Shown one piece after another: positions 41,865 to 52,959 of a stretch of 64,000 nucleotides of DNA (position 1 is the stretch's first letter; each line of letters begins with the position of its first letter). Below the pieces are notes generated by a model that worked only from the letters and a program-made list of their open reading frames with translations, was not told the DNA's origin and did no database searches. Origin of the DNA: Buttiauxella selenatireducens. Its GTDB lineage: Bacteria > Pseudomonadota > Gammaproteobacteria > Enterobacterales > Enterobacteriaceae. Location: positions 2,480,001-2,544,000 of the forward strand of contig NZ_CP133838.1 of NCBI RefSeq assembly GCF_031432975.1, in the 5' to 3' direction. The translations under genes and the position numbers were made by a program.

Positions 41865-43124
41865 TTAGCTGCCCCAACGGCTTTTAAGGTAGCTGACGGC
41901 TTCACGCGTCTGCGGTTGATTGAGATAGTCTTCCCTGAACAAAATAGTGCCGTCGATGTGTGGCATTGATTCGTTCATATCAAGCTGTTTTTTCAGCTCC
42001 GGTACGCCGCCGTTGATCACCCAGTCTGGCTCGACCTTCGAACGCTCACCGACCTTATACAGCGCAACGCCAATATAGAGGCGCGTATGGGTAGGTTTCA
42101 CCACCTCTGACCACCATTTTGCCAATACATCGTAACGGGCAGCGTCACGGGCGAACGGCCAGTACAATTGCGGGGCGATATAATCCAGCAGGCCTTGTTG
42201 CACCCACTGACGGGTATCAGCGAATGATTCATCGTATGCCGCAGCTCCTCGCGTATCAGAACCCGCCGGGTCGAATGAGCGATTGCGCCATACACCGGCA
42301 GGGCTAACACCGAATTCAACGCCTGGTTTCAACTGCTTAATCGTGCGAGAAACCTGTTCTATTAATTGCTGAGTATTGTGGCGTCGCCAGTCCGCTTTTG
42401 CGTTAAATGCCTGCCCATATTGTTTAAAGGTCTGGCTGTCGTTTAGCGCAGAGCCGGGGGACTCGGTGTAGAAATAATCATCAAACTGTACGCCGTCAAT
42501 ATCATAACCTTTGACCACCTCAGCCACGATGCTGGTTATCCAGTCACGCGCTTCAGGAATACCAGGGTCGACGACGAAACGGTCGCCCGCCGTACGGATC
42601 CAGTCGCGATGCAGGACATAAACACTCGACGGATTCGCAGACAACGTGCGGTTGAGTCTGGCAACGGTTGACGATGTCGTGTTGGTGGAAACTCGGTAAG
42701 GGTTAAACCAGGCGTGGACCTTAATGCCACGTTTATGCGCTTCTTCAATCATAAATTGCAGCGGGTCGTAGCCAGGGTTCTCACCAATATTCCCCGTAAA
42801 TACATCAGACCACGGCAAAATTTTTGATGACCAAAGAGCCGTACCGTCCGGTTTAACCTGGAAGAAAACGGTGTTAATACCAAGGCTCTTCAGCTTATCA
42901 AGTTTGTCGGTGAGCGCCTTTTGTTGCACGCGTATGCGAACATCAGGGTCACTGATATCAGCAGAAGAGACCGGTGGCCAGTCGAGGCGCGACACGGTCG
43001 CAAGCCAGACACCCCGCATCGGTTCACGCGTTTGATCCGTTTTCCCATGAGCAGGAGGCGTCACAGACGGCAACGGAGTTACCAGCGATTTCGGCGGTTT
43101 GGATGAACAACTGGCGAGTAACAA
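41865..43124 (-). CDS. digH: DigH-type peptidoglycan glycosidase, GH10-like lipoprotein (start unclear)
   Basis: At least 419 residues aligning with E. coli DigH (formerly YddW), an outer-membrane lipoprotein that cuts denuded glycan strands. The conserved parts are PMRGVWLATVSRLDWPPVSS, NTVFFQVKPDGTALW, HAWFNPYRVS, VDGVQFDDYFYTESPGS and GVSPAGVWRNRS. The start is odd. The first usable codon in frame is a TTG at 43124 inside the signal peptide, yet the codons before it read KSKKLGTLVAAVLLLASC, a full lipoprotein signal. No ATG, GTG or TTG precedes them in frame before a stop. One extra A in the A5 run near 43152 would link a GTG at 43168 (MFLNRKK...). Confidence 0.85.
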   Translation of the reverse strand: MLLASCSSKPPKSLVTPLPSVTPPAHGKTDQTREPMRGVWLATVSRLDWPPVSSADISDPDVRIRVQQKALTDKLDKLKSLGINTVFFQVKPDGTALWSSKILPWSDVFTGNIGENPGYDPLQFMIEEAHKRGIKVHAWFNPYRVSTNTTSSTVARLNRTLSANPSSVYVLHRDWIRTAGDRFVVDPGIPEARDWITSIVAEVVKGYDIDGVQFDDYFYTESPGSALNDSQTFKQYGQAFNAKADWRRHNTQQLIEQVSRTIKQLKPGVEFGVSPAGVWRNRSFDPAGSDTRGAAAYDESFADTRQWVQQGLLDYIAPQLYWPFARDAARYDVLAKWWSEVVKPTHTRLYIGVALYKVGERSKVEPDWVINGGVPELKKQLDMNESMPHIDGTILFREDYLNQPQTREAVSYLKSRWGS

Positions 43125-43301
43125 AACAGCGGCAACAAGGGTGCCTAACTTTTTCGATTTAAGAACACGGGAAACGCTGCGAGGGCTGCTGATGATAGAC
43201 TCCAGTTTTTTCAGGGCGCGGCTAAAAGAATTATTCTCTTATGATTTAAATTTAAGTCAATCAAACCCGCTACCCAGAATGGCCTGGTTTGTTATTTGTC
43301 T

Positions 43302-43520
43302 TCAATTCTCCTTCAAATGAAGACGTCCATTTTCCATGATCAGAACCCGATCAGCAGAAGCGAGAGTCTCTGGCCTGTGGGCGATAAGAAGAACGGGTAT
43401 TCCCGTTTGACGCAGGGTCTGGCTGATGATGATTTCGCTTTCCACATCCAGATGACTTGTCGCTTCATCAAGCAACAGAAAACCAGGATTCTTGTACAGC
43501 GCTCGGGCTAAAAGCAACAC
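43302..43520 (-). pseudogene. C-terminal remnant of a CvaB-type bacteriocin ABC exporter
   Basis: 72 residues covering only the end of an ABC ATPase: LLLARALYKNPGFLLLDEAT (Walker B), SHLDVESE (D-loop) and LIAHRPETLASADRVLIMEN (H-loop). The SHLD and AHRPET wording is that of colicin V exporters (CvaB/RaxB). The C39 peptidase, membrane and Walker A parts are missing; a stop (TAA) lies just upstream in frame. It cannot be active. It lies downstream of a microcin-like precursor gene and two small membrane protein genes, implying a former export system. Confidence 0.82.
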
Positions 43521-43561
43521 GATATTTTATCAGAAGGCAATAACGCCGAGTCATTACTCAC

Positions 43562-43777
43562 TTACAATTTCCTTTTAGGAGAAATCACTTTTAATATATA
43601 GGGAAGCATCTTCATCAAGATAGTAATGGATGAATGAAATGTGAAAACAATCAAGATGAATTTTGAAAATCCAGCAGGCAAAGAATACCATGTTAAAAAT
43701 GCGACGGAAGAACCACTTAGCAATGATGCACCAATCAGAACACCGAGTATCACAGTAATAAATTTTACTAATGCCAT
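43562..43777 (-). CDS. Small two-helix membrane protein, immunity-like
   Basis: 71 residues with two hydrophobic segments (about 5-28, FITVILGVLIGASLLSGSSV; and 39-61) and a basic tail (ISPKRKL). GGAAG sits ahead of the ATG. No family is recognised. Size, topology and place between a microcin-like precursor and a CvaB-type exporter remnant recall microcin immunity proteins, which are small inner-membrane proteins. That role is an inference from context. The flanking DNA is markedly AT-rich compared with digH and the secretion genes. Confidence 0.55.
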   Translation of the reverse strand: MALVKFITVILGVLIGASLLSGSSVAFLTWYSLPAGFSKFILIVFTFHSSITILMKMLPYILKVISPKRKL

Positions 43778-43906
43778 TGCATCTTCCGCCGGATAGTTAT
43801 TTATCTTTTACTGGCCGCACCCTCTACACCACTACTGCTAACAAGGGTTAAACCATTCCTTTAGCCACAAATGAATAATATTTATTACCTGACTGGCCTT
43901 TAGCTA

Positions 43907-44125
43907 CTAACTAACCAATTTAGTTATTGTTAACAGAATTCTAGAAACAGCAGGTGGAATTAATTTCCCACAAGTATATATAACACTAGATATAGTGAAT
44001 ATTTTCACTGCAATTTGGATGACTGTACATGCCTCTAAGTGATTTAGCATAGTTACGGAATTATAAGCTATAAAAATAGACAAAATCACTGCTATCGTAG
44101 TGCTCAGATGCTTACCCACATTCAT
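43907..44125 (-). CDS. Small two-helix membrane protein, immunity-like (2)
   Basis: 72 residues, two hydrophobic segments (about 8-27, LSTTIAVILSIFIAYNSVTM; and 33-55) and a basic C-terminal part. Size and layout are the same as for the 43562-43777 product, but sequence similarity between them is low. The ribosome binding site is weak. Not recognised; it may be a second immunity protein or an accessory peptide of the same microcin-like locus. Confidence 0.5.
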   Translation of the reverse strand: MNVGKHLSTTIAVILSIFIAYNSVTMLNHLEACTVIQIAVKIFTISSVIYTCGKLIPPAVSRILLTITKLVS

Positions 44126-44179
44126 AATATATACCGGTCAAAATTAACGGAATTGAGCGCATTACTTTTGGTATCAGGT

Positions 44180-44365
44180 TTACACGCCTTGGACAGTCGC
44201 ATCAGTCGCATCAGTCGCATCAGTCGCATAATTCGGCTGAAAACCATTAGCTTTCTCTCTATATCCATTGTTTGTAGAATTATTATTTACAACGGCACGA
44301 TCGGAGACATTATCACCACTAACTAAAGCGATCTCATCTAAACTTAATTCTCTGATATTAGACAT
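44180..44365 (-). CDS. Microcin-like precursor peptide with double-glycine-type leader
   Basis: 61 residues. The N-terminus MSNIRELSLDEIALVSGDN follows the class II microcin leader pattern M-R-E-L-x-x-x-E-x-x-x-V-S-G, except that the residue after the Gly is Asp rather than Gly or Ala. The remaining 42 or so residues are polar (Asn-rich, then ATD repeats), unlike hydrophobic class II microcins, so it may be divergent or decayed. The frame extends to 44476, but AGGG lies ahead of the ATG at 44365 and the leader starts there. Genes for two small membrane proteins and an exporter remnant follow. Confidence 0.6.
   Translation of the reverse strand: MSNIRELSLDEIALVSGDNVSDRAVVNNNSTNNGYREKANGFQPNYATDATDATDATVQGV
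44194..44229. repeat. Four perfect 9-bp tandem repeats inside the microcin-like gene
   Basis: CAGTCGCAT repeats four times without error (44194-44229). On the coding (minus) strand it encodes the Ala-Thr-Asp repeats near the C-terminus of the precursor. A multiple-of-three unit would change peptide length without breaking the frame. Confidence 0.9.
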
Positions 44366-44505
44366 AAAATCCCTTTTAAATGCTTTTAGCAAAAAGTGCT
44401 GATCAACTATTACACATACAAATTGTAAGTGGATAGTGATTATTTGTAAAAAAACAAAAATCAGGAATATTCCCATACAATAACTACATTCAAGGCTGAT
44501 CCCTA

Positions 44506-45843
44506 TCAGTACTCTTTAAACGCCAGTTCCAGGCGTGCGATCAGCGGTTTGAACAGGTAGCTTAAGAATGTCCGCTCGCCGGTTTTTATCGTCACACTTG
44601 CTGGCATGCCAGCTTTAATCTTGTAGTCTCCCAGTAAATGCACGCCTTCGGCGGAAACTTGTACCTCGGCAAGGTAATAGGGTTGTTGTGTGACTTCATC
44701 AATTAAGCGGTCGGCGGAGATGGTTAAGACACGGGCAGGCACCGACGGTAATAAAGCGTGATTGAGGGCAGGGAATAGCACATCAACCGTTAACCCCGGC
44801 ACCAGTTTATCAATAGCGTGTACCGGTATTTTGGCATCGATTTGCAAGGGTTGTCTGGCGGCAATAATATCCATTAAATGCTCGCCTGGCTGAATGACAC
44901 CGCCCACCGTACTGACTTTGACATCCAGCACGATACCGTCAATCGGCGAGCGAATTTCCGTGTTATCCAGTTCGTGACGTGTCGAAACCAGTTCATCTTC
45001 CAGCATGGCGACTTCTTTTTGTTTTTCCGTTAACTCGGATTCCACTTCCCGCAAATATTGGTGGCGCACCTGATACGCTTTGATTTTCAATTCATTTTGT
45101 TGTGATTTTAGTTTGGCAATATTCAGAATATCCTCTGATACACTGCCGGATATTTCCGCGGCTTCACGTTCCAGCACCAGTAATTGTGCTTTGGGGTAGT
45201 AGTTTTTTTCACTGAGCGCTCTTATTGCGCTTAATTCTCTGGTGATCAGGTTGAACTGGTGATCCCGATAACCCTTTATTCTGTTTAGATTTTCAGTTTG
45301 CCCCAAAAGGCCATCGAGTGTTTCCTGAATCATGGATAATTCATCCTCGATCGTTTTTTTGCGGGTATCAAATAATTTGGCTTGCAGGTTTCGCACTTCG
45401 GCCAAACGCTTATTATCGGCAAATTTCTCGGTCAGGGTATTATCGAAAGCAATAGTATCCAGGCCGTCTCTTTCCGCCAGCAAACGATCTTCAATGCTTT
45501 TTGCTGAAATATATTGTGCATTTAATGCGCTGTACCGCATGTCGAGCTGCATTTTGTCCAGGCGAACTAATACCTGATCCTTTTTGACGACGTCTCCTTC
45601 TTTAATAAAAATATCGGTTACCCGACCACCGCTCAGGTGTTGAATCGTTTTACGGTTACTCGAAACTGTCACCGTGCCGTCAGCCACAACACCGGCATCC
45701 AAAGGTGCCTGTACCGCCCAAAACAAGAAGCCACCAACGCCCAGAACAATGACGATTATTCCGCGCAAGATAGGCGGCCAGATGCGCGTATCCACACGGT
45801 CTGAGCCAGCTGCTTTATCGTTTTTTTCGTTGTTTTTCATCAT
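44506..45843 (-). CDS. HlyD/PrtE-type membrane fusion protein of type I secretion
   Basis: 445 residues. One N-terminal membrane helix (about 25-47, ILRGIIVIVLGVGGFLFWAV), then a biotinyl-lipoyl half (KTIQHLSGGRVTDIFIKEGD), a long coiled coil (about 105-300), and a C-terminal barrel with RSPIDGIVLDVKVSTVGGVI and GMPASVTIKTGERTFLSYL. It bridges the ABC protein and a TolC-like outer-membrane channel, which is not encoded nearby; housekeeping TolC is the likely partner. The start codons overlap the ABC gene's stop, so the two are coupled. Confidence 0.93.
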   Translation of the reverse strand: MMKNNEKNDKAAGSDRVDTRIWPPILRGIIVIVLGVGGFLFWAVQAPLDAGVVADGTVTVSSNRKTIQHLSGGRVTDIFIKEGDVVKKDQVLVRLDKMQLDMRYSALNAQYISAKSIEDRLLAERDGLDTIAFDNTLTEKFADNKRLAEVRNLQAKLFDTRKKTIEDELSMIQETLDGLLGQTENLNRIKGYRDHQFNLITRELSAIRALSEKNYYPKAQLLVLEREAAEISGSVSEDILNIAKLKSQQNELKIKAYQVRHQYLREVESELTEKQKEVAMLEDELVSTRHELDNTEIRSPIDGIVLDVKVSTVGGVIQPGEHLMDIIAARQPLQIDAKIPVHAIDKLVPGLTVDVLFPALNHALLPSVPARVLTISADRLIDEVTQQPYYLAEVQVSAEGVHLLGDYKIKAGMPASVTIKTGERTFLSYLFKPLIARLELAFKEY

Positions 45844-47582
45844 CAGGCCTCACGTTGCTGTTCATTACTTGATGAAGGTGCGGTTGACACGGGTTTTAAA
45901 ATGTTGGCTTGTCGTAGGCTGGTGAAAACCTGGTCGCGGGTTCCAAATTCCTGTATGGCTCCCTCATTGAGCAGTAAGACTTTATTGACCACACCGAGCA
46001 GCGTCGGGCGATGCGAGATAATGACCGTGGTTTGCCCCTGAGTACGCAGGGTATTAATCGCCTTAACCAGGGCGAGTTCACCGGCATCATCCAGATTGGC
46101 ATTCGGTTCATCCAGTACGATGAAAGCGGGATTGTTATAGACGGCACGCGCCAGACCAATACGCTGCCGCTGCCCACCGGATAACTGGTGTCCGCCCGCG
46201 CCGAGGAGCGTGTCGTAGCCCTGCGGCAGGCGTAAAATCATCTCGTGTACACCAGCAAGAACCGCGGCGGCCACAATAAGTTCGCTATCATTTTTTTCAA
46301 AACGGGCGATGTTTTGCGCGATGCTGCCGTCAAACAATTCAACTTCTTGCGGCAGATAGCCAATGGCAGGGCCGAGTAACGCTTTATCCCATTGGCAAAT
46401 ATCTGCGCCATCCAGGCGAACCTTGCCAGATAACGGTGCCCATACGCCGACCAGCAGCTTCGCAAGCGAGGTTTTTCCTGATGCGGAAGGGCCAATAATG
46501 CCCAGCACTTCCCCTTGTTCCAGTTGGAATGAGATATTACGCAACAGGGGTGCTTTCTGACCGGGGGCGGCAGCAAACACGCTTTCTACGCTGATATTTC
46601 CTTTTGGGCGCGGCAAAGTCAGGATGTCTTTAGGCGCCGGGTAATCCTTGAGCAACGTCGATAACTGGTGCCAGGCGCTACGAAACTGCACAAACTGCTT
46701 CCAGCTACCAATGATTTGCTCCACCGGGTTCAGAACTCTTCCAAGAATGATGGACGAGGCAATCATCAGCCCCGGGGTAATTTGCCCCCCGATCACCAGT
46801 AATGCGCCGGCACCCAGTGCGACAGATTGCAGTAGTACACGCACAAAGCGGCTCAAACTGCTTAACCCTGCGTTTTTATCGGCTATCTGCGTTTGTAAAA
46901 CCAGCACTTTGCTGTGCTGCTCCTGCCAGTTGAGTTTCAGGGTGGAAAGCATTCCCATTGCTTCAATGGCATCCGAATTTTGCAATTGTTTATTGAGTTT
47001 GGTGGCGTTGTTGATGGTCAACGCATGAGCTTGTTGAATAGGGCGTTTGGTTGATATTTCAGAAACCACTGTCAGGGCAAATAATATGAGTATCCCCCCC
47101 AGGGCAAGATACCCGAGCAGCGGATGGACAATAAATGCAATGAATAAATAAATCGGCGTCCAGGGTATATCAAGCAACGCAAATAAACTGTTACCGGAAA
47201 GAAACTGGCGAATTTGGTCCAGCTCTGCCAGCGACTGGGCAGGGTTATTTTCGCCAGTTGAAACCTTTCTTTTAAACGCGGCATTAAACACTAATTGGCT
47301 TAATTTTACGTCCAGTCGGTTGCCAAGTCTGACCATAACACTTGAGCGGGCAGACTCAATCATCGCAATAACGATGTATAGACCGACTATCAGTAAGGTT
47401 AACATCAGTAATGTCGTGGTATTTTTACTGACTAAAACTCGGTCGTAGACCTGCAACATATAGATTGCCGGCGCCAGCATAAGCATATTAATCACACAAC
47501 TAAAAAACAGCAGCATAATAAATGTGGATTTCGTTCCCTTTAATGCATTCTTCAGTTCTGTTGGCGTATGCTGGCGCGACAT
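45843..47582 (-). CDS. PrtD-type type I secretion ABC transporter
   Basis: 579 residues. A six-helix membrane domain (about 20-310) precedes an ATPase domain with Walker A GPSASGKTS, signature LSGGQRQRIGLA, Walker B AFIVLDEPNANLD and the H-loop ISHRP. There is no N-terminal peptidase or peptidase-like extension, so it belongs to the PrtD/AprD group that exports RTX proteins with uncleaved C-terminal signals. The cargo is very probably the peroxidase encoded 10 bases upstream. Confidence 0.94.
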   Translation of the reverse strand: MSRQHTPTELKNALKGTKSTFIMLLFFSCVINMLMLAPAIYMLQVYDRVLVSKNTTTLLMLTLLIVGLYIVIAMIESARSSVMVRLGNRLDVKLSQLVFNAAFKRKVSTGENNPAQSLAELDQIRQFLSGNSLFALLDIPWTPIYLFIAFIVHPLLGYLALGGILILFALTVVSEISTKRPIQQAHALTINNATKLNKQLQNSDAIEAMGMLSTLKLNWQEQHSKVLVLQTQIADKNAGLSSLSRFVRVLLQSVALGAGALLVIGGQITPGLMIASSIILGRVLNPVEQIIGSWKQFVQFRSAWHQLSTLLKDYPAPKDILTLPRPKGNISVESVFAAAPGQKAPLLRNISFQLEQGEVLGIIGPSASGKTSLAKLLVGVWAPLSGKVRLDGADICQWDKALLGPAIGYLPQEVELFDGSIAQNIARFEKNDSELIVAAAVLAGVHEMILRLPQGYDTLLGAGGHQLSGGQRQRIGLARAVYNNPAFIVLDEPNANLDDAGELALVKAINTLRTQGQTTVIISHRPTLLGVVNKVLLLNEGAIQEFGTRDQVFTSLRQANILKPVSTAPSSSNEQQREA

Positions 47583-47592
47583 AGTTTTCTCC

Positions 47593-50500
47593 TTACGCGA
47601 TCAATGAACTATTGCCATTGTTAGCGGCAAAGGTTGATGGTATTTCCAGAATAAAATCACCGATGGTAACGGTGGTTGAATTAACACCGACTAAGGTAAT
47701 CGTGTCAGCGCCGACGCTGACAACGGTATTCCCACCACTACCGGAGATCCCAACGTTTGCCGCAAAATTACCCGCGGTAATGCCCAGCAAACTCAGATCG
47801 AGGTAATCCTGCCCGCCTGCGGGAGCACTGTCGAATCCGGTGATACGATCCTGCCCAAAGCTTGCGCTGAAGGCGAAGATGTCTTCCCCGGTGCCGCCAT
47901 CCATGTTGTCATTACCCGCTTGACCATTGAGTATGTCGTTGCCGGTTCCTCCCGCCATAACATCGGCACCTGCGCCACCAATCATGACGTCGTTGCCGTT
48001 TCCACCCTGAAGATTATCGATTCCGTCGCCGCCATCCAGGAAGTCATTCCCCCCTCCGCCTGACACCTGGTCGTTGCCGCCCATCCCAAACAGCGAGTCA
48101 TTACCATTACCGCCGGTAATAATGTTGGCGATGGCATTCCCTGTACCGATGAAATTGCCTGTCCCGGTGTACACCAGTTCTTCAACGTTATCGGTCAAAT
48201 CGTAACTGCTGAGGTTGGTTCGAACGACATCCGTCCCGCCATTCGCGCCTTCTATGACAACATCACCCGCATTATCAACGATGTAAGTGTCGTTACCGAC
48301 ACCACCCGTCATGCTGTCAGCACCCAGGCCGCCATCGAGTGTGTCGTTTCCGGCATCCCCTTGCAGGATATCGTTACCGGCTTCACCCAACAGGTTGTCA
48401 TTGCCTGCACCACCGACCAGCAAATCGTCGCCCGCCCGTCCTTGTAGGGTATCGTTGCCACCTTCGCCGCGCAGGATGTCACTCCATGCGGTACCGTTGA
48501 GGTTGTCAGTACCGTTATTACCCACCATCAGATCGCCGACAGGCTGCGTTGTGGTAGAAGTCAGGACAACAGGGGGGTTACCCTCATCATCAACGACGGT
48601 GACGACCACCTGCAACGTCCGACCCACCGCGGCCTGGCCTGGTGTATATGTGGCAGCAGTCGCTCCGAGAATGTTGGTAAACCCGTTCCCGTTCGCGTTG
48701 CTCATTCTCCACTGGTAGCTAAAATTACCCCCGCTCAGGCCGTCAGCATCGGTAATACCGGAAACAACAGCGGTAAGCGTCAGGCTTTCGGTTGGTGTCA
48801 GGTCATTGATGACCGGCTGCCCCTGGGTTGCCTGATTTCGTGGCACAACAGCCTGTGTTTGGCTTGAAACCAGTCTTTCCGCATCACCCATCTGGTCATT
48901 GAAACTGGCGACCACGCGCAATGCTGCCCCCTGGGCTGTTCCCGGCACCCGGAACTCAGCCCCGGTTGCCTGATCCCGCCATTCGCCGCCGATAAAGGCC
49001 TGCCATGTCAGTGTTATTGCGGCGTTAGCGGCAATACCGTTGCCATCACTTAAATTAGCCAGGTTGACTCGCAGAAGGTCGCCCACCTGAGGTGTCGCAT
49101 TACTGATGGCGAGATTCCCGGTAGCCTGTTGTGCCGTCACCCATAGCTGCTTGCCGTCGCCAAACTCCAGTTTTTCGATGTTCAGCAGGCGGTCAATACC
49201 ATCATTGAGGTTCAATGCGGCATTTGGCGTGGCATGGTCGACACGCAGACTGCCGTCCGCCATACGGGTAAAGACGTAGTTGCTGCTGATATCACGATAA
49301 ACCGCAACGTCGATGTCTCCGCTGTTATTCTCACGCAGGATCTCACGCACAATGGAGAGTTGGTCGGGTTTTAAGGTGCCAGCCAGCATGTAAGATTTCA
49401 GCTCGTTCATGCCGTCCACACTGGTGATACCCGGCAAACCACTGACCGCAATGCGTACGTTCAGCCATGAGTCGCCATCAATAATGTCATTACCTGCTTT
49501 ACCGGTTATGCGGTCGCTGCCGCCGCCGCCGAGTAAAATATCGCCGCCGTTATCGGGGTTAAACAGCACGGCATTCGGGTCAGAAGAACGTGCAACGCCG
49601 AGGATCTGTTGCAGCCCCGCAATCCGGTCAGCCCCTTCCTGAGTCAGATTATTGGAAAGCGGAACACCCTGAACCGGCGCAGTGCCGAGAGGTTGCTCAG
49701 TGCCCGTTAACACGTCGTTGTGTTTCCAGCCCGATAACCCTTCGACCAGGTCGAAACGATCCCGCAGGATAAATTCCTGTTGGTTGACGAAAATCGGAAT
49801 ACCGAGGTCAGAGTTAGCGCCATTTGGGTCGCCTTTATGGATTGCCCAGTCGAAACCGGCCATCCCATTATTGCGCTGAATACCCGCGCCCTGAACCATG
49901 ATGTCGTCACCTGCTTCGCCATCATAGTCAGTATCGTTACCCTGGCCGTTCAGCACGTCGTGACCGACAATCGTACTGTTGAAGAACAACTCGGAGTTCT
50001 CACCGGTCAGCGAGTCAAACCCGTCACCGCCTTCCAACCAGTCGTCACCTTCATTGCCAAGCAGGGCATCACCACCGGAACCACCCTGTACAAAGTCATT
50101 ATCGCGACCTGCAAAGACTTCCTGTGCATCTTCGCCCACCACGATAAAATCACTGCCGCTGCCACCGAAGACCAGATCGTTACCGTTACCCGAGAAGATG
50201 ACGTCATGACCCGCATCGCCATGCAGGAAGTCGGCATCCCCAACAGGCGTCCCGGTGTCAGTAATAATGTCATCGCCGTCACCGCCGTGGACCACGTCAG
50301 CTTCATCACCACCATCAAGGCGGTCATCGCCCGCATCACCCCACAGGCTGTCGATACCTTTACCGCCGATGAGCGTATCGTTACCGGCAGTACCACCCAG
50401 CACCACATGACCGTCACCGGTATATTTAAGGTAACCGCCGTCTTTTGCACCGTCGCCGTCAACATCCGTTGTGGCCTCACGCCGAACCAGCAGCGGGCTC

Positions 50501-52959
50501 AGCAGATCTTTCAATTGATTTCCCCATTTCGGATCGAGTTCGGTTTGCAACACACGGTTGACTTCAAAAATATGGTCCGGGGTCTGGAACAGGTTAGCGG
50601 GCAGGTGAGAGGAACCACTTTCACCCAGATCGCTGTTGCGCATCACCAGCGCGGAGAATGAGTTTGCTTCCAGCTCGTTGAGTAAGTTCAACCCCTGGAC
50701 ACGGCTCAGATAGTAGAACCGGTCGCCGTCTTGCAGCATTTCCATTTGCGTTTCAAAGACAAAGTTAAAGGTTGAACCGAGCATTCCACCGAACTCGTTT
50801 TTGCGCTCAGCAAGGCCGCCAATCCAGAAATCGATCATATTCAGACCGGTTTCTTGTGTCGCCCAGGCACCCGTGCTGTTGAAGAAATCCATCGCATCAG
50901 AAGGCGGTGAGATATGGTTTTTCTCGTCGCCAAACAGCAGGAAGTTGACCGCCGCGCGTTTCCCTTCAAGGGTGGTGGCATTCAAAATCAGCTCATGCTG
51001 GCCGTAGGCGGCCATAAAGTTGATGATGGAAGCCGGGTTTTTCAGGTAAGTCGTGAAATCCGCCCAACTGGTGTAAGGCCGTAACTCGCTGTTACCGGTT
51101 AACTCAAAGAATTGCTCGCGCGCCTGGTTCAGCGTCGGCATTCCTGTATCACGGCCACGGGCAATGTTGAGTGCCCCTAAATCAAGCGGAAGGCCGATTA
51201 GGTTGTTACGCAGGGCATCGGTAATAAATTCATCAATTTCGTTACCCACTTGCCGCGTCATGCCGCGAACAATCGCACCGATGGCCTGGTCATCGGAAAC
51301 CGTTGCACCGTTAATTTGATTAAAGGCGACCGGATTGAGGAAGGCGGCAATCAGGCCAATATCGCCATTTTCCATATCAATGTCGGTACGAGCGACCGTT
51401 TCAGTCAGCATCGAGTGGCCAAAACGGTAAACCACGTGTGCAAACTCAGCGAAGATAGCCGGATTGATGTCTGCACTGTTGGAGAAGACAAACGGATCGA
51501 CCGCCGGTTGTACGGTACGAGCGAACTCTTCGAAAACAAGGTGCTGGTATTGCATCTCAGTAGTGAAACGACCTGCCTGGAATAGGTATTCTCCGTTCCA
51601 GACCAGAGTGCTGGTATCAGCAGGCAGTGTTTCGATCTGGTGATTCGGCATTAACCATTGGTTAATCAGGCCAACATCACCGGTCGCCAGCAGGGTGGTT
51701 TTATACTCTTCGACCAGGCGGTTATGCTCGCTGTGAAACACTGCATGCACGGCGGTCAGGCCGATATTTTCGTTACCGCGCCCGTCACCCGTGATGAAAT
51801 GCCGATCGAGCAGTTCATCATCGTAGGTTCCTGGAGCCTGAACGCCACCAATCGCATCGTCGCTATCCGCCACCAGACCTTTCGGATTGGCAGTATGGGC
51901 AATGTCATCGAGGAAAGCGTGGCCGGTACGGACGGTATTTGGCGGTAAAAAACCTTCGTTAGCTTCAATCAAACCACCAGGGAGATCGTCTGTGGCTGCG
52001 GTAACAATCTGCACTTTACCGTTTTCACTTAAGATCAAATTGCCGTAACGGTCAGTCGCCAGCAGCGGAACGTTAAACACATCCTGATCGGTAAGTTTAA
52101 TTCCGAGTAAGGTTTCAGCCTGGTTCTTAACATCTGCCCAGGTAGCCAGGCCACCGTTTGCTCCACCTAATAAATTACCCGTAGGTTCGGGTTTCCCATC
52201 AATTAATACATATTCGCGGATGAATATCTGATGGGAAGGGTGAGAGGTGTAGGTTTGGTTTTGATCAATAAATGGGGTGGTCAGGTTTTTTGTTTCATGA
52301 TTAGCGTCTACTTCTGCCCGGGTTAATATCATGAAGTTATTAGGATTAGGGTTGTCTTTTGTAGGCGCTACAAATAAAGGGTCATCAGGTTGCAACTCAA
52401 TGAAAACAATGCCATTGCCCCCTTTAGGAATTAAATCCAGTCCATGGTCAAAAAACTGACCAAAGAATGTCATCCAGCCATTAAAAGCAGGGGACAGACC
52501 AATATCGGGAGACAGGTTAGGAATGGACAAACTGCCATTTGCCGACGTTGCGCCTCCCCCTGGCGCACCAGCCAGATCTTCATGTGCTTCAACCGCAGCG
52601 GGGTTGGTGGCCGTCTGATCTGAAATTAAGTTACTGATAATACGCGGGTCTGCATCTTTGACCATTCCCCCAATTTGGGTGTAACTGGTCATGTTATCCG
52701 CATCTTGTAAGTTCAATGCGGTGAGTCTTGGCATAGTTTGGTCGGCTGAGCCGTAGAGTTCCTGTCCGGGCAGGAGGTTATTCCACGAACCATCTACTGT
52801 ACGTAACCCGTAAGGCAATAACGGGCTGGAAACAGCATCACGCAGGTCTTCGCCATTGATACTGCCGTCTGCGTTTGTTGCTCCTTCTGATATTTTGATC
52901 TGCTTAAGGATAAATGCAAGGTCGTGGAGCGTGACCGTAAAGTCATATTGTGAGGCCAT
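47593..52959 (-). CDS. Secreted animal-type haem peroxidase with RTX repeats (1788 aa)
   Basis: The peroxidase domain (about 150-780) keeps the distal His172 in FFGQFFDHGLDL, the Arg394/Glu397 pair in GDGRGNENIG, HAVFHSEHNRL, proximal His515 in YRFGH and DLGALNIARGRDTGMPTLN. RTX block 1 (about 850-1020) and block 2 (about 1445-1690) hold many GGxGxDxLxG nonapeptides that fold on calcium. Ig-like stretches (YQWRMSNANG; LTWQAFIGGEWRD) lie between them. There is no N-terminal signal peptide; the end (TVTIGDFILEIPS) suits a C-terminal type I signal. Related bacterial RTX haem peroxidases include Mn(II)-oxidising MopA; substrate here unknown. First gene of the operon with its exporter. Confidence 0.93.
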   Translation of the reverse strand: MASQYDFTVTLHDLAFILKQIKISEGATNADGSINGEDLRDAVSSPLLPYGLRTVDGSWNNLLPGQELYGSADQTMPRLTALNLQDADNMTSYTQIGGMVKDADPRIISNLISDQTATNPAAVEAHEDLAGAPGGGATSANGSLSIPNLSPDIGLSPAFNGWMTFFGQFFDHGLDLIPKGGNGIVFIELQPDDPLFVAPTKDNPNPNNFMILTRAEVDANHETKNLTTPFIDQNQTYTSHPSHQIFIREYVLIDGKPEPTGNLLGGANGGLATWADVKNQAETLLGIKLTDQDVFNVPLLATDRYGNLILSENGKVQIVTAATDDLPGGLIEANEGFLPPNTVRTGHAFLDDIAHTANPKGLVADSDDAIGGVQAPGTYDDELLDRHFITGDGRGNENIGLTAVHAVFHSEHNRLVEEYKTTLLATGDVGLINQWLMPNHQIETLPADTSTLVWNGEYLFQAGRFTTEMQYQHLVFEEFARTVQPAVDPFVFSNSADINPAIFAEFAHVVYRFGHSMLTETVARTDIDMENGDIGLIAAFLNPVAFNQINGATVSDDQAIGAIVRGMTRQVGNEIDEFITDALRNNLIGLPLDLGALNIARGRDTGMPTLNQAREQFFELTGNSELRPYTSWADFTTYLKNPASIINFMAAYGQHELILNATTLEGKRAAVNFLLFGDEKNHISPPSDAMDFFNSTGAWATQETGLNMIDFWIGGLAERKNEFGGMLGSTFNFVFETQMEMLQDGDRFYYLSRVQGLNLLNELEANSFSALVMRNSDLGESGSSHLPANLFQTPDHIFEVNRVLQTELDPKWGNQLKDLLSPLLVRREATTDVDGDGAKDGGYLKYTGDGHVVLGGTAGNDTLIGGKGIDSLWGDAGDDRLDGGDEADVVHGGDGDDIITDTGTPVGDADFLHGDAGHDVIFSGNGNDLVFGGSGSDFIVVGEDAQEVFAGRDNDFVQGGSGGDALLGNEGDDWLEGGDGFDSLTGENSELFFNSTIVGHDVLNGQGNDTDYDGEAGDDIMVQGAGIQRNNGMAGFDWAIHKGDPNGANSDLGIPIFVNQQEFILRDRFDLVEGLSGWKHNDVLTGTEQPLGTAPVQGVPLSNNLTQEGADRIAGLQQILGVARSSDPNAVLFNPDNGGDILLGGGGSDRITGKAGNDIIDGDSWLNVRIAVSGLPGITSVDGMNELKSYMLAGTLKPDQLSIVREILRENNSGDIDVAVYRDISSNYVFTRMADGSLRVDHATPNAALNLNDGIDRLLNIEKLEFGDGKQLWVTAQQATGNLAISNATPQVGDLLRVNLANLSDGNGIAANAAITLTWQAFIGGEWRDQATGAEFRVPGTAQGAALRVVASFNDQMGDAERLVSSQTQAVVPRNQATQGQPVINDLTPTESLTLTAVVSGITDADGLSGGNFSYQWRMSNANGNGFTNILGATAATYTPGQAAVGRTLQVVVTVVDDEGNPPVVLTSTTTQPVGDLMVGNNGTDNLNGTAWSDILRGEGGNDTLQGRAGDDLLVGGAGNDNLLGEAGNDILQGDAGNDTLDGGLGADSMTGGVGNDTYIVDNAGDVVIEGANGGTDVVRTNLSSYDLTDNVEELVYTGTGNFIGTGNAIANIITGGNGNDSLFGMGGNDQVSGGGGNDFLDGGDGIDNLQGGNGNDVMIGGAGADVMAGGTGNDILNGQAGNDNMDGGTGEDIFAFSASFGQDRITGFDSAPAGGQDYLDLSLLGITAGNFAANVGISGSGGNTVVSVGADTITLVGVNSTTVTIGDFILEIPSTFAANNGNSSLIA

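What the first reader, a model, noticed from the sequence alone, without database searches (positions are those of the whole stretch)
43302..44365. AT-rich islet with microcin-like precursor, two immunity-like proteins and a decayed CvaB-type exporter
Seen: a 61-residue peptide whose first 19 residues follow the class II microcin leader pattern (RELSLDEIALVSG), two co-directional genes for 71- and 72-residue two-helix proteins, then the last 72 residues of a colicin V-type exporter. Known: class II microcins use exactly these parts. Inference: an unlisted microcin family or its remains. The polar, repeat-bearing mature part and Asp after the leader Gly are not like known microcins. With the exporter truncated, the cell may keep immunity only, or use another exporter.
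Basis: partly seen in the sequence, partly recalled or inferred. Interest (0 to 1): 0.82.

Follow-up and report, generated by a model that had tools for sequence, protein, structure and literature searches.

The report
Decayed microcin locus with surviving immunity genes
This short AT-rich stretch is the wreck of a known type of bacterial peptide-toxin operon: the toxin gene and its exporter are broken, while two small membrane proteins that probably protect cells against such toxins are still intact.

Summary
In detail: a 61-residue leader-bearing ORF, intact 72- and 71-residue two-helix ORFs and the last 72 residues of an exporter lie on the minus strand. The islet (about 43284-44503) is the remnant of a microcin S / microcin PDI-type class IIa microcin locus, not a new kind. 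Relatives of the peptide in Enterobacter sp. CC120223-11 and a Pluralibacter MAG are 120 and 115 aa, and a homologue of the 72-residue protein follows them directly. The window's copy lacks about 106 bp, the hydrophobic Gly-rich core; its 3' end survives out of frame, and the double-glycine site reads Gly-Asp. That explains the polar, repeat-bearing 'mature part'. The 71-residue protein belongs to the family of McpI, the reported immunity protein of microcin PDI. The adaptor is gone, only the exporter tail remains, and the genome's single other C39 match lacks the catalytic residues. A same-species genome and eight other same-genus genomes with both flanks seen lack the islet here. Best reading: toxin and export dead, immunity possibly still working. 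Orphan immunity beside a truncated toxin gene is a published kind. By-products: an unannotated McpI-like gene in the microcin S operon and an uncatalogued immunity-like family.

The parts
43284..44503 (.). Islet present in this genome only; replaces 54 bp of the same-species genome G009 between a HlyD-type adaptor gene and a DigH/YddW-like glycosyl hydrolase gene
   Evidence: flanking proteins 99.8-100% identical in G009; the 54 bp of G009 includes a hairpin-like GAGTGG..CCACTC (by eye) also seen in G007, G008 and G004, so absence looks ancestral
44314..44447 (-). Leader start and upstream region conserved with intact microcin loci
   Evidence: 75% DNA identity to G006 over 134 bp; alignment with two other loci; one search lists a 10-of-12 promoter-like site at 44450-44422, but such sites are at chance level in the region (6 found, 4.9 expected)
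44180..44365 (-). Truncated MccS/MccPDI-type microcin precursor (61 aa): leader kept, Gly-Asp in place of the double glycine, hydrophobic core deleted, frame ends early
44194..44229 (-). 9-bp unit x4 perfect tandem array inside the truncated precursor (reads DAT DAT DAT)
44144..44187 (-). Surviving 3' end of the original precursor gene, out of frame with the leader's end (CKPD.. in one frame, QFR-stop in another)
   Evidence: three-frame translation and DNA alignment with G387 and G210
43907..44125 (-). 72-aa two-helix protein, intact; homologue sits directly after the precursor in three other microcin clusters; probable immunity protein
43562..43777 (-). 71-aa two-helix protein of the McpI family (immunity protein of microcin PDI), intact
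43302..43520 (-). Last 72 residues of a C39-peptidase ABC exporter (McsB/CvaB type); peptidase, membrane domain, Walker A and signature motif missing

Best explanation
A decayed microcin S / microcin PDI-type class IIa microcin locus, probably once with more than one toxin-immunity cassette sharing one exporter. Shown: the toxin gene has lost its hydrophobic core and its cleavage doublet; no CAAX-type gene and no membrane-fusion adaptor of this system is found, and all but the tail of the C39-ABC exporter is gone; two small membrane-protein genes are full length. Inferred: no active microcin is made or exported, and the two small proteins, if still expressed from the preserved upstream region, sit in the inner membrane and block incoming microcins of this group, leaving an immunity-only islet. 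That they are maintained by selection is not shown (I give current immunity function about 0.5).
For: Homology of all four ORFs to MccS/MccPDI-type clusters. L039 is the mccPDI locus: its precursor has Cys at 57, 90, 109, 118, as stated for McpM in PMC5311971, and the next gene is the relative of the 71-aa ORF. Three other loci (E. soli, Pluralibacter MAG, Enterobacter sp. CC120223-11) carry a pep61-type precursor followed by the 72-aa homologue, and further on an adaptor and a C39-ABC exporter; a CAAX gene of full length in two, a CAAX fragment match in E. soli. CC120223-11 and E. soli hold tandem cassettes. DNA alignment shows a 106-bp gap and the surviving out-of-frame 3' end. All 9 precursors aligned keep GG. 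No McsI or adaptor match in the islet and only the tail of McsB. No other precursor match and no catalytic C39 exporter in the genome. The exporter tail shows 33 synonymous against 7 non-synonymous differences to G006, so decay is recent. Parallels: McpI-type genes stand alone in G314 and G195; in G365 a precursor with an early in-frame stop stands before an open McpI-type gene, with no C39 match in the genome; in E. soli the pep61-type precursor reads in two frames while the 72-aa homologue is open.
Against: Immunity function of the window's proteins was not tested. Because the decay looks recent, two intact 71-72 codon ORFs could be open by chance of time. The 72-aa family has no tested member. 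Only one genome carrying the islet is available. A remnant of a second precursor before the 71-aa gene was sought and was not significant. In most (not all) McpI-type loci seen, a precursor-like gene is still there, so solitary immunity genes are the minority.
Confidence: 0.86

Rival explanations
1. Pure debris: the locus arrived or decayed recently, and the two small ORFs are open only because there has been little time; they do nothing. (A sub-reading of the best explanation, differing on present function.)
For: Exporter tail still reads as under purifying selection (33 syn: 7 non-syn), so the decay is young; the islet is in one of ten same-genus genomes with both flanks seen; promoter-like sites are at chance level.
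Against: The toxin gene carries several lesions while both immunity-type ORFs carry none; solitary McpI-type genes recur in two other genomes, one with pN/pS 0.23 to its relative in the microcin S operon.
Confidence: 0.4
2. The 61-aa peptide is itself a functional short secreted peptide (bacteriocin or signal) that uses another exporter.
For: Leader well conserved; a short 55-aa precursor-like ORF next to an McpI-type gene exists in two Pantoea plasmids with no exporter annotated in the fetched stretches.
Against: Double-glycine doublet lost; core deleted with an out-of-frame 3' remnant; no catalytic C39 exporter in the genome; no hydrophobic segment, maximum 19-residue hydropathy 0.41, against 1.49 and 1.24 in the two full-length relatives.
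Confidence: 0.04
3. A toxin-antitoxin-like or addiction module unrelated to microcin export.
For: Small peptide plus small membrane proteins in an AT-rich islet.
Against: The parts, including the exporter tail, match microcin S/PDI-type clusters and follow their order, apart from the two immunity-type genes standing side by side.
Confidence: 0.03

Closest known systems
Microcin S locus mcsS-mcsI-mcsA-mcsB (E. coli G3/10, pSYM1; PMC3316575, passages read)
   Same: Leader MSNIRELS(F/L)DEIALVSG, exporter tail 84% identical over 64 aa, small two-helix ORF after the precursor (38.7% identical over 62 aa to the 71-aa protein)
   Different: Window has lost the core of the precursor, the CAAX immunity gene mcsI, mcsA and most of mcsB, and has an extra 72-aa gene; the small ORF of pSYM1 is not annotated as a gene on its strand in PLSDB's table and the paper counts four genes
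Microcin PDI locus mcpM-mcpI-mcpA-mcpD-mcpB (PMC5311971, passages read)
   Same: 71-aa protein is of the McpI family, the reported immunity protein; same leader type
   Different: No working precursor or exporter in the window; the 72-aa protein has no counterpart there; the 71-aa (McpI-type) and 72-aa families are not detectably related
Tandem microcin cassettes of Enterobacter sp. CC120223-11 and Enterobacter soli ATCC BAA-2102, single cassette of a Pluralibacter MAG
   Same: Precursor type and 72-aa homologue in the same order
   Different: They keep adaptor and exporter; precursor 120 aa (CC120223-11) and 115 aa (Pluralibacter); the E. soli one reads in two frames
Orphan bacteriocin immunity genes beside truncated toxin genes in E. 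coli plasmids (PMC12546727, passages read)
   Same: Immunity gene kept, toxin gene heavily truncated
   Different: Here in the genome's single 5.2-Mb contig, so a chromosome, in a microcin S/PDI-type locus of another genus

Membership tests
Class II microcin system (working) | Precursor with N-terminal leader ending in a double-glycine (GG or GA) site | tested here: not met
   Leader matches but the doublet reads Gly-Asp; GG in 9 of 9 precursors aligned
Class II microcin system (working) | Core peptide of the MccS/MccPDI type (Gly-rich hydrophobic segment, Cys) | tested here: not met
   106-bp gap against the full-length relative G387; 3' end out of frame
Class II microcin system (working) | C39-peptidase ABC exporter | tested here: not met
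   Only a 72-aa tail here; the single other C39 match in the genome (723-aa protein, E 1.8e-4) aligns Leu, Gly and Glu with the Cys, His and Asp of McsB exporters
Class II microcin system (working) | Membrane-fusion adaptor of the CvaA/McsA type | tested here: not met
   No McsA match in the islet; the neighbouring HlyD gene 44506-45843 is a type I hlyD adaptor next to a PrtD-type ABC gene and is present in relatives without the islet
Class II microcin system (working) | Dedicated immunity gene next to the precursor | tested here: met
   By homology and position only: 72-aa homologue directly follows the precursor in 3 other loci; 71-aa protein is McpI-type
McpI immunity family | Sequence homology to McpI of the mccPDI locus and its relatives | tested here: met
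   Profile without the window hits at E 3.2e-22; LLSG motif invariant in 6 of 6 rows
McpI immunity family | Confers protection against microcin PDI / its cognate microcin | not testable with these tools
   Needs a killing assay
Orphan immunity gene | Immunity-type gene without a cognate intact toxin in the genome | tested here: met
   No other precursor-profile match at E <= 1 in the genome; a toxin too diverged for that profile would be missed

The most novel reading that the evidence does not exclude
The islet is a chromosomal immunity-only island kept by selection against two different microcin S/PDI-group toxins, and its 72-aa protein is the first described member of a separate immunity family. 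With the McpI-like gene that I find unannotated inside the microcin S operon, it would mean that this microcin group regularly pairs a small two-helix immunity protein with a CAAX-type protein, and that the small one is what recipients keep.
Probability: 0.3. Interest if true: 0.55.

Novelty: new member of a known kind. Interest (0 to 1): 0.36.

Why it matters
It turns an apparent new microcin family into an explained relic, and warns that short polar 'mature parts' after a good leader can be deletion products. It points to an overlooked McpI-like gene in the well-studied microcin S operon, and to solitary McpI-type genes in other genomes, which bear on whether microcin immunity is kept for protection against neighbours.

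Tried and rejected
Rejected: an intact new microcin (deletion and lost GG); export by another exporter; homology between the 71- and 72-aa families (hhalign probability 2.5, E 0.019; the 72-aa profile's second hit in the window is the 71-aa ORF, but at E 0.14). Tried without result: Pfam and NCBIfam gave no meaningful family for the three small ORFs, nor NCBIfam for nine relatives; the 72-aa protein had no plasmid hit. A second precursor remnant before the 71-aa gene scored within the range of shuffles (18-22 against shuffle maxima 26-29 in five comparisons). The 20-nt imperfect inverted repeat around the gene block was reached in 5 of 100 Markov simulations. In one search (35 of 392 genomes at E <= 0.1) the hits other than the own copy, G210 and G387 lie at E 0.002-0.1, several with stop codons, and were treated as chance. 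In one search (19 of 392 genomes at E <= 0.001) hits weaker than about E 1e-8 are shaky: BLAST found no other part around L105 and L111 and only general ABC matches around L114. A motif scan for precursors was too strict (it found 2) and was not used. Structure prediction could not be completed; topology rests on hydropathy only. The host genus was not named: the only named scan does not show the own record.

Full report
What is there. On the minus strand, between a HlyD-type adaptor gene (44506-45843) and a DigH/YddW-like glycosyl hydrolase gene (41865-43124; Pfam GHL10, the DigH/YddW name is recalled), lie in transcription order a 61-aa ORF, a 72-aa ORF, a 71-aa ORF and a 72-residue exporter tail. 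The stretch is AT-rich (GC 0.35). NCBIfam recognises the exporter tail (best match: an NHLP-type bacteriocin exporter, E 3.8e-18, far below its cut-off because only the tail is present); Pfam and NCBIfam give nothing meaningful for the three small ORFs.

Relatives of the parts. The first 41 residues of the peptide match 71 plasmid records of Enterobacterales, E 0.02 at best; the 40 rows listed have 53.7-54.5% identity and include pSYM1, the microcin S plasmid of E. coli G3/10 (PMC3316575, passages read). The 71-aa protein matches 76 plasmid records; in the five of them that I opened it follows a precursor-like ORF, as it does in pSYM1. In one, the E. coli plasmid L039, that precursor has cysteines at 57, 90, 109 and 118, the positions given for McpM (PMC5311971, passages read), so by the published gene list the neighbour is McpI, reported there as the immunity gene. 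The 72-aa protein has no plasmid match. In all three the homologue follows a pep61-type precursor, with adaptor and C39-ABC exporter further on; a full-length CAAX gene in two, a CAAX fragment match in E. soli, where the pep61-type precursor itself reads in two frames. Profiles made only from homologues found the window ORFs at E 1.6e-10, 3.2e-22 and 3.7e-23.

What is broken. Against the 120-aa precursor of G387 the window gene has a gap of 106 bp that removes the cysteine-bearing, Gly-rich hydrophobic core, and ends early; the 3' end of the old gene (CKPD.. in one frame, QFR-stop in another) is still readable around and after the stop. The position after the conserved leader glycine is Asp, where 9 of 9 aligned precursors have the second Gly. 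Queries with McsI and McsA of intact loci find nothing in the islet, and McsB finds only the tail, the end of the ATP-binding domain. That tail shows 33 synonymous and 7 non-synonymous differences to the intact exporter of G006 over 64 codons, so most of its history was under selection and the decay is recent.

Where it came from. A second genome of the same species (G009), with the flanking proteins 99.8-100% identical, has 54 bp in place of the 1.2-kb islet. Of the ten other same-genus genomes, eight show both flanks in the fetched stretch, 115-362 bp apart (1,384 bp here); in G010 only the hydrolase gene was found and for G005 the site was not fetched. By eye G009 shares a hairpin-like sequence after the adaptor gene with G007, G008 and G004, so the empty state looks ancestral. 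Same-genus genomes G006 and G004 hold intact microcin clusters at other places. E. soli and CC120223-11 hold tandem cassettes followed by one full adaptor-exporter pair in the stretch; the window's two unrelated immunity-type genes fit a former locus of this kind. A remnant of a second precursor was looked for and not found at significance.

Can anything still be exported? The own genome has one match to the C39 peptidase family at E <= 0.001, in a 723-aa exporter. Aligned with four McsB-type exporters it has Leu, Gly and Glu where they have the Cys, His and Asp that make up the recalled catalytic triad. G009 has a match of the same size and score. No second precursor was found in the genome. 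So the peptide is very unlikely to be matured or secreted by the known route.

Is the immunity alive? Hydropathy shows two membrane segments in each protein and none in the peptide (the two full-length relatives of the peptide also stay below the cut-off of 1.5, at 1.49 and 1.24). Both ORFs are full length against their relatives. pN/pS of the window proteins to relatives is 0.44-0.64 with synonymous sites near saturation, similar to equally distant pairs among the relatives; this neither shows nor excludes present selection. Parallels exist. In G314 and G195 a McpI-type gene stands alone: no precursor by BLAST in the fetched stretch or by profile in the genome, and no intact C39 exporter (G314 no match, G195 one weak match in a 160-aa frame; surroundings). 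The G314 gene has pN/pS 0.23 to the pSYM1 ORF. In G365 the precursor has an early in-frame stop while the McpI-type frame next to it is open, and the genome has no C39 match. On the other side, most of the McpI-type loci opened still have a precursor-like match near by. Orphan immunity genes, some beside heavily truncated toxin genes, are described for E. coli plasmids (PMC12546727, passages read). I therefore hold an immunity-only relic as likely, and present immunity function as about even.

Novelty. The kind is known (microcin S/PDI-type locus; orphan immunity beside a truncated toxin). New in detail: the 72-aa family, for which Pfam and NCBIfam gave nothing meaningful (one relative in NCBIfam), and an McpI-like gene in the microcin S operon, not annotated on its strand in PLSDB's table of pSYM1 although pN/pS to McpI is 0.30. 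The microcin S paper counts four genes and tested two small ORFs, whose identity I could not establish; in the passages seen they were tested for inhibitory activity. I did not see the McpI-microcin S link in the passages read of seven papers, found by searches; other papers listed there were not opened, and the library lacks most subscription papers.

Noticed in passing
L035 9533-9730 (pSYM1, minus strand): The microcin S operon contains a small two-helix ORF between mcsS and mcsI that is 73% identical to McpI over 66 aa (measured on the G236 copy); it is not annotated on that strand, and an ORF on the opposite strand is annotated instead.
   Followed up: partly
L039 7200-7436 (mccPDI locus): The gene after mcpI (mcpA by the published order) is an internally deleted version of the CAAX-type McsI: its two ends match McsI residues 4-57 and 186-212.
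   Followed up: partly
L096 6701-6898 (G314), L097 7179-7379 (G195): Solitary McpI-type immunity genes without precursor and without an intact C39 exporter in the genome.
   Followed up: partly
L099 6055-6609 (G365, minus strand): Precursor-like gene with an early in-frame stop before an open McpI-type frame, no C39 match in the genome: a second dead-toxin, open-immunity pair.
   Followed up: partly
L115 6649-8703 (Enterobacter soli): Array of three precursor-like genes, two of them readable only in two frames, one adaptor-exporter pair, and only a CAAX fragment: a half-decayed relative of the window locus.
   Followed up: no
L040 6815-7192, L042 7815-8192 (Pantoea plasmids): A 55-aa leader-bearing, Gly/Ser/Cys-rich ORF with a GA site overlaps an McpI-like gene; no exporter is annotated in the fetched stretches. 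A possible short-core branch of the family.
   Followed up: no
L101 (G312), L104 (G371): Precursor-like genes next to McpI-like genes with atypical N-termini: the G371 one has no double glycine near its start, the G312 one has a GG but no usual leader; G371 has no C39 match in the genome.
   Followed up: no
L095 6902-11523 (G236:C1): A complete microcin S cluster, McsS 100% identical to pSYM1, lies on a 4.38-Mb contig, so apparently in a chromosome.
   Followed up: no
window 43551-43570 and 44420-44439: Imperfect 20-nt inverted repeat (17 of 20) bounding the three small genes; reached in 5 of 100 simulations, so perhaps chance.
   Followed up: partly
window 44506-52959: Next to the islet: a type I secretion pair (HlyD- and PrtD-type) and a 1,788-aa protein with an animal-type haem peroxidase domain and RTX repeats; the HlyD-type gene is also present in relatives without the islet.
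   Followed up: no
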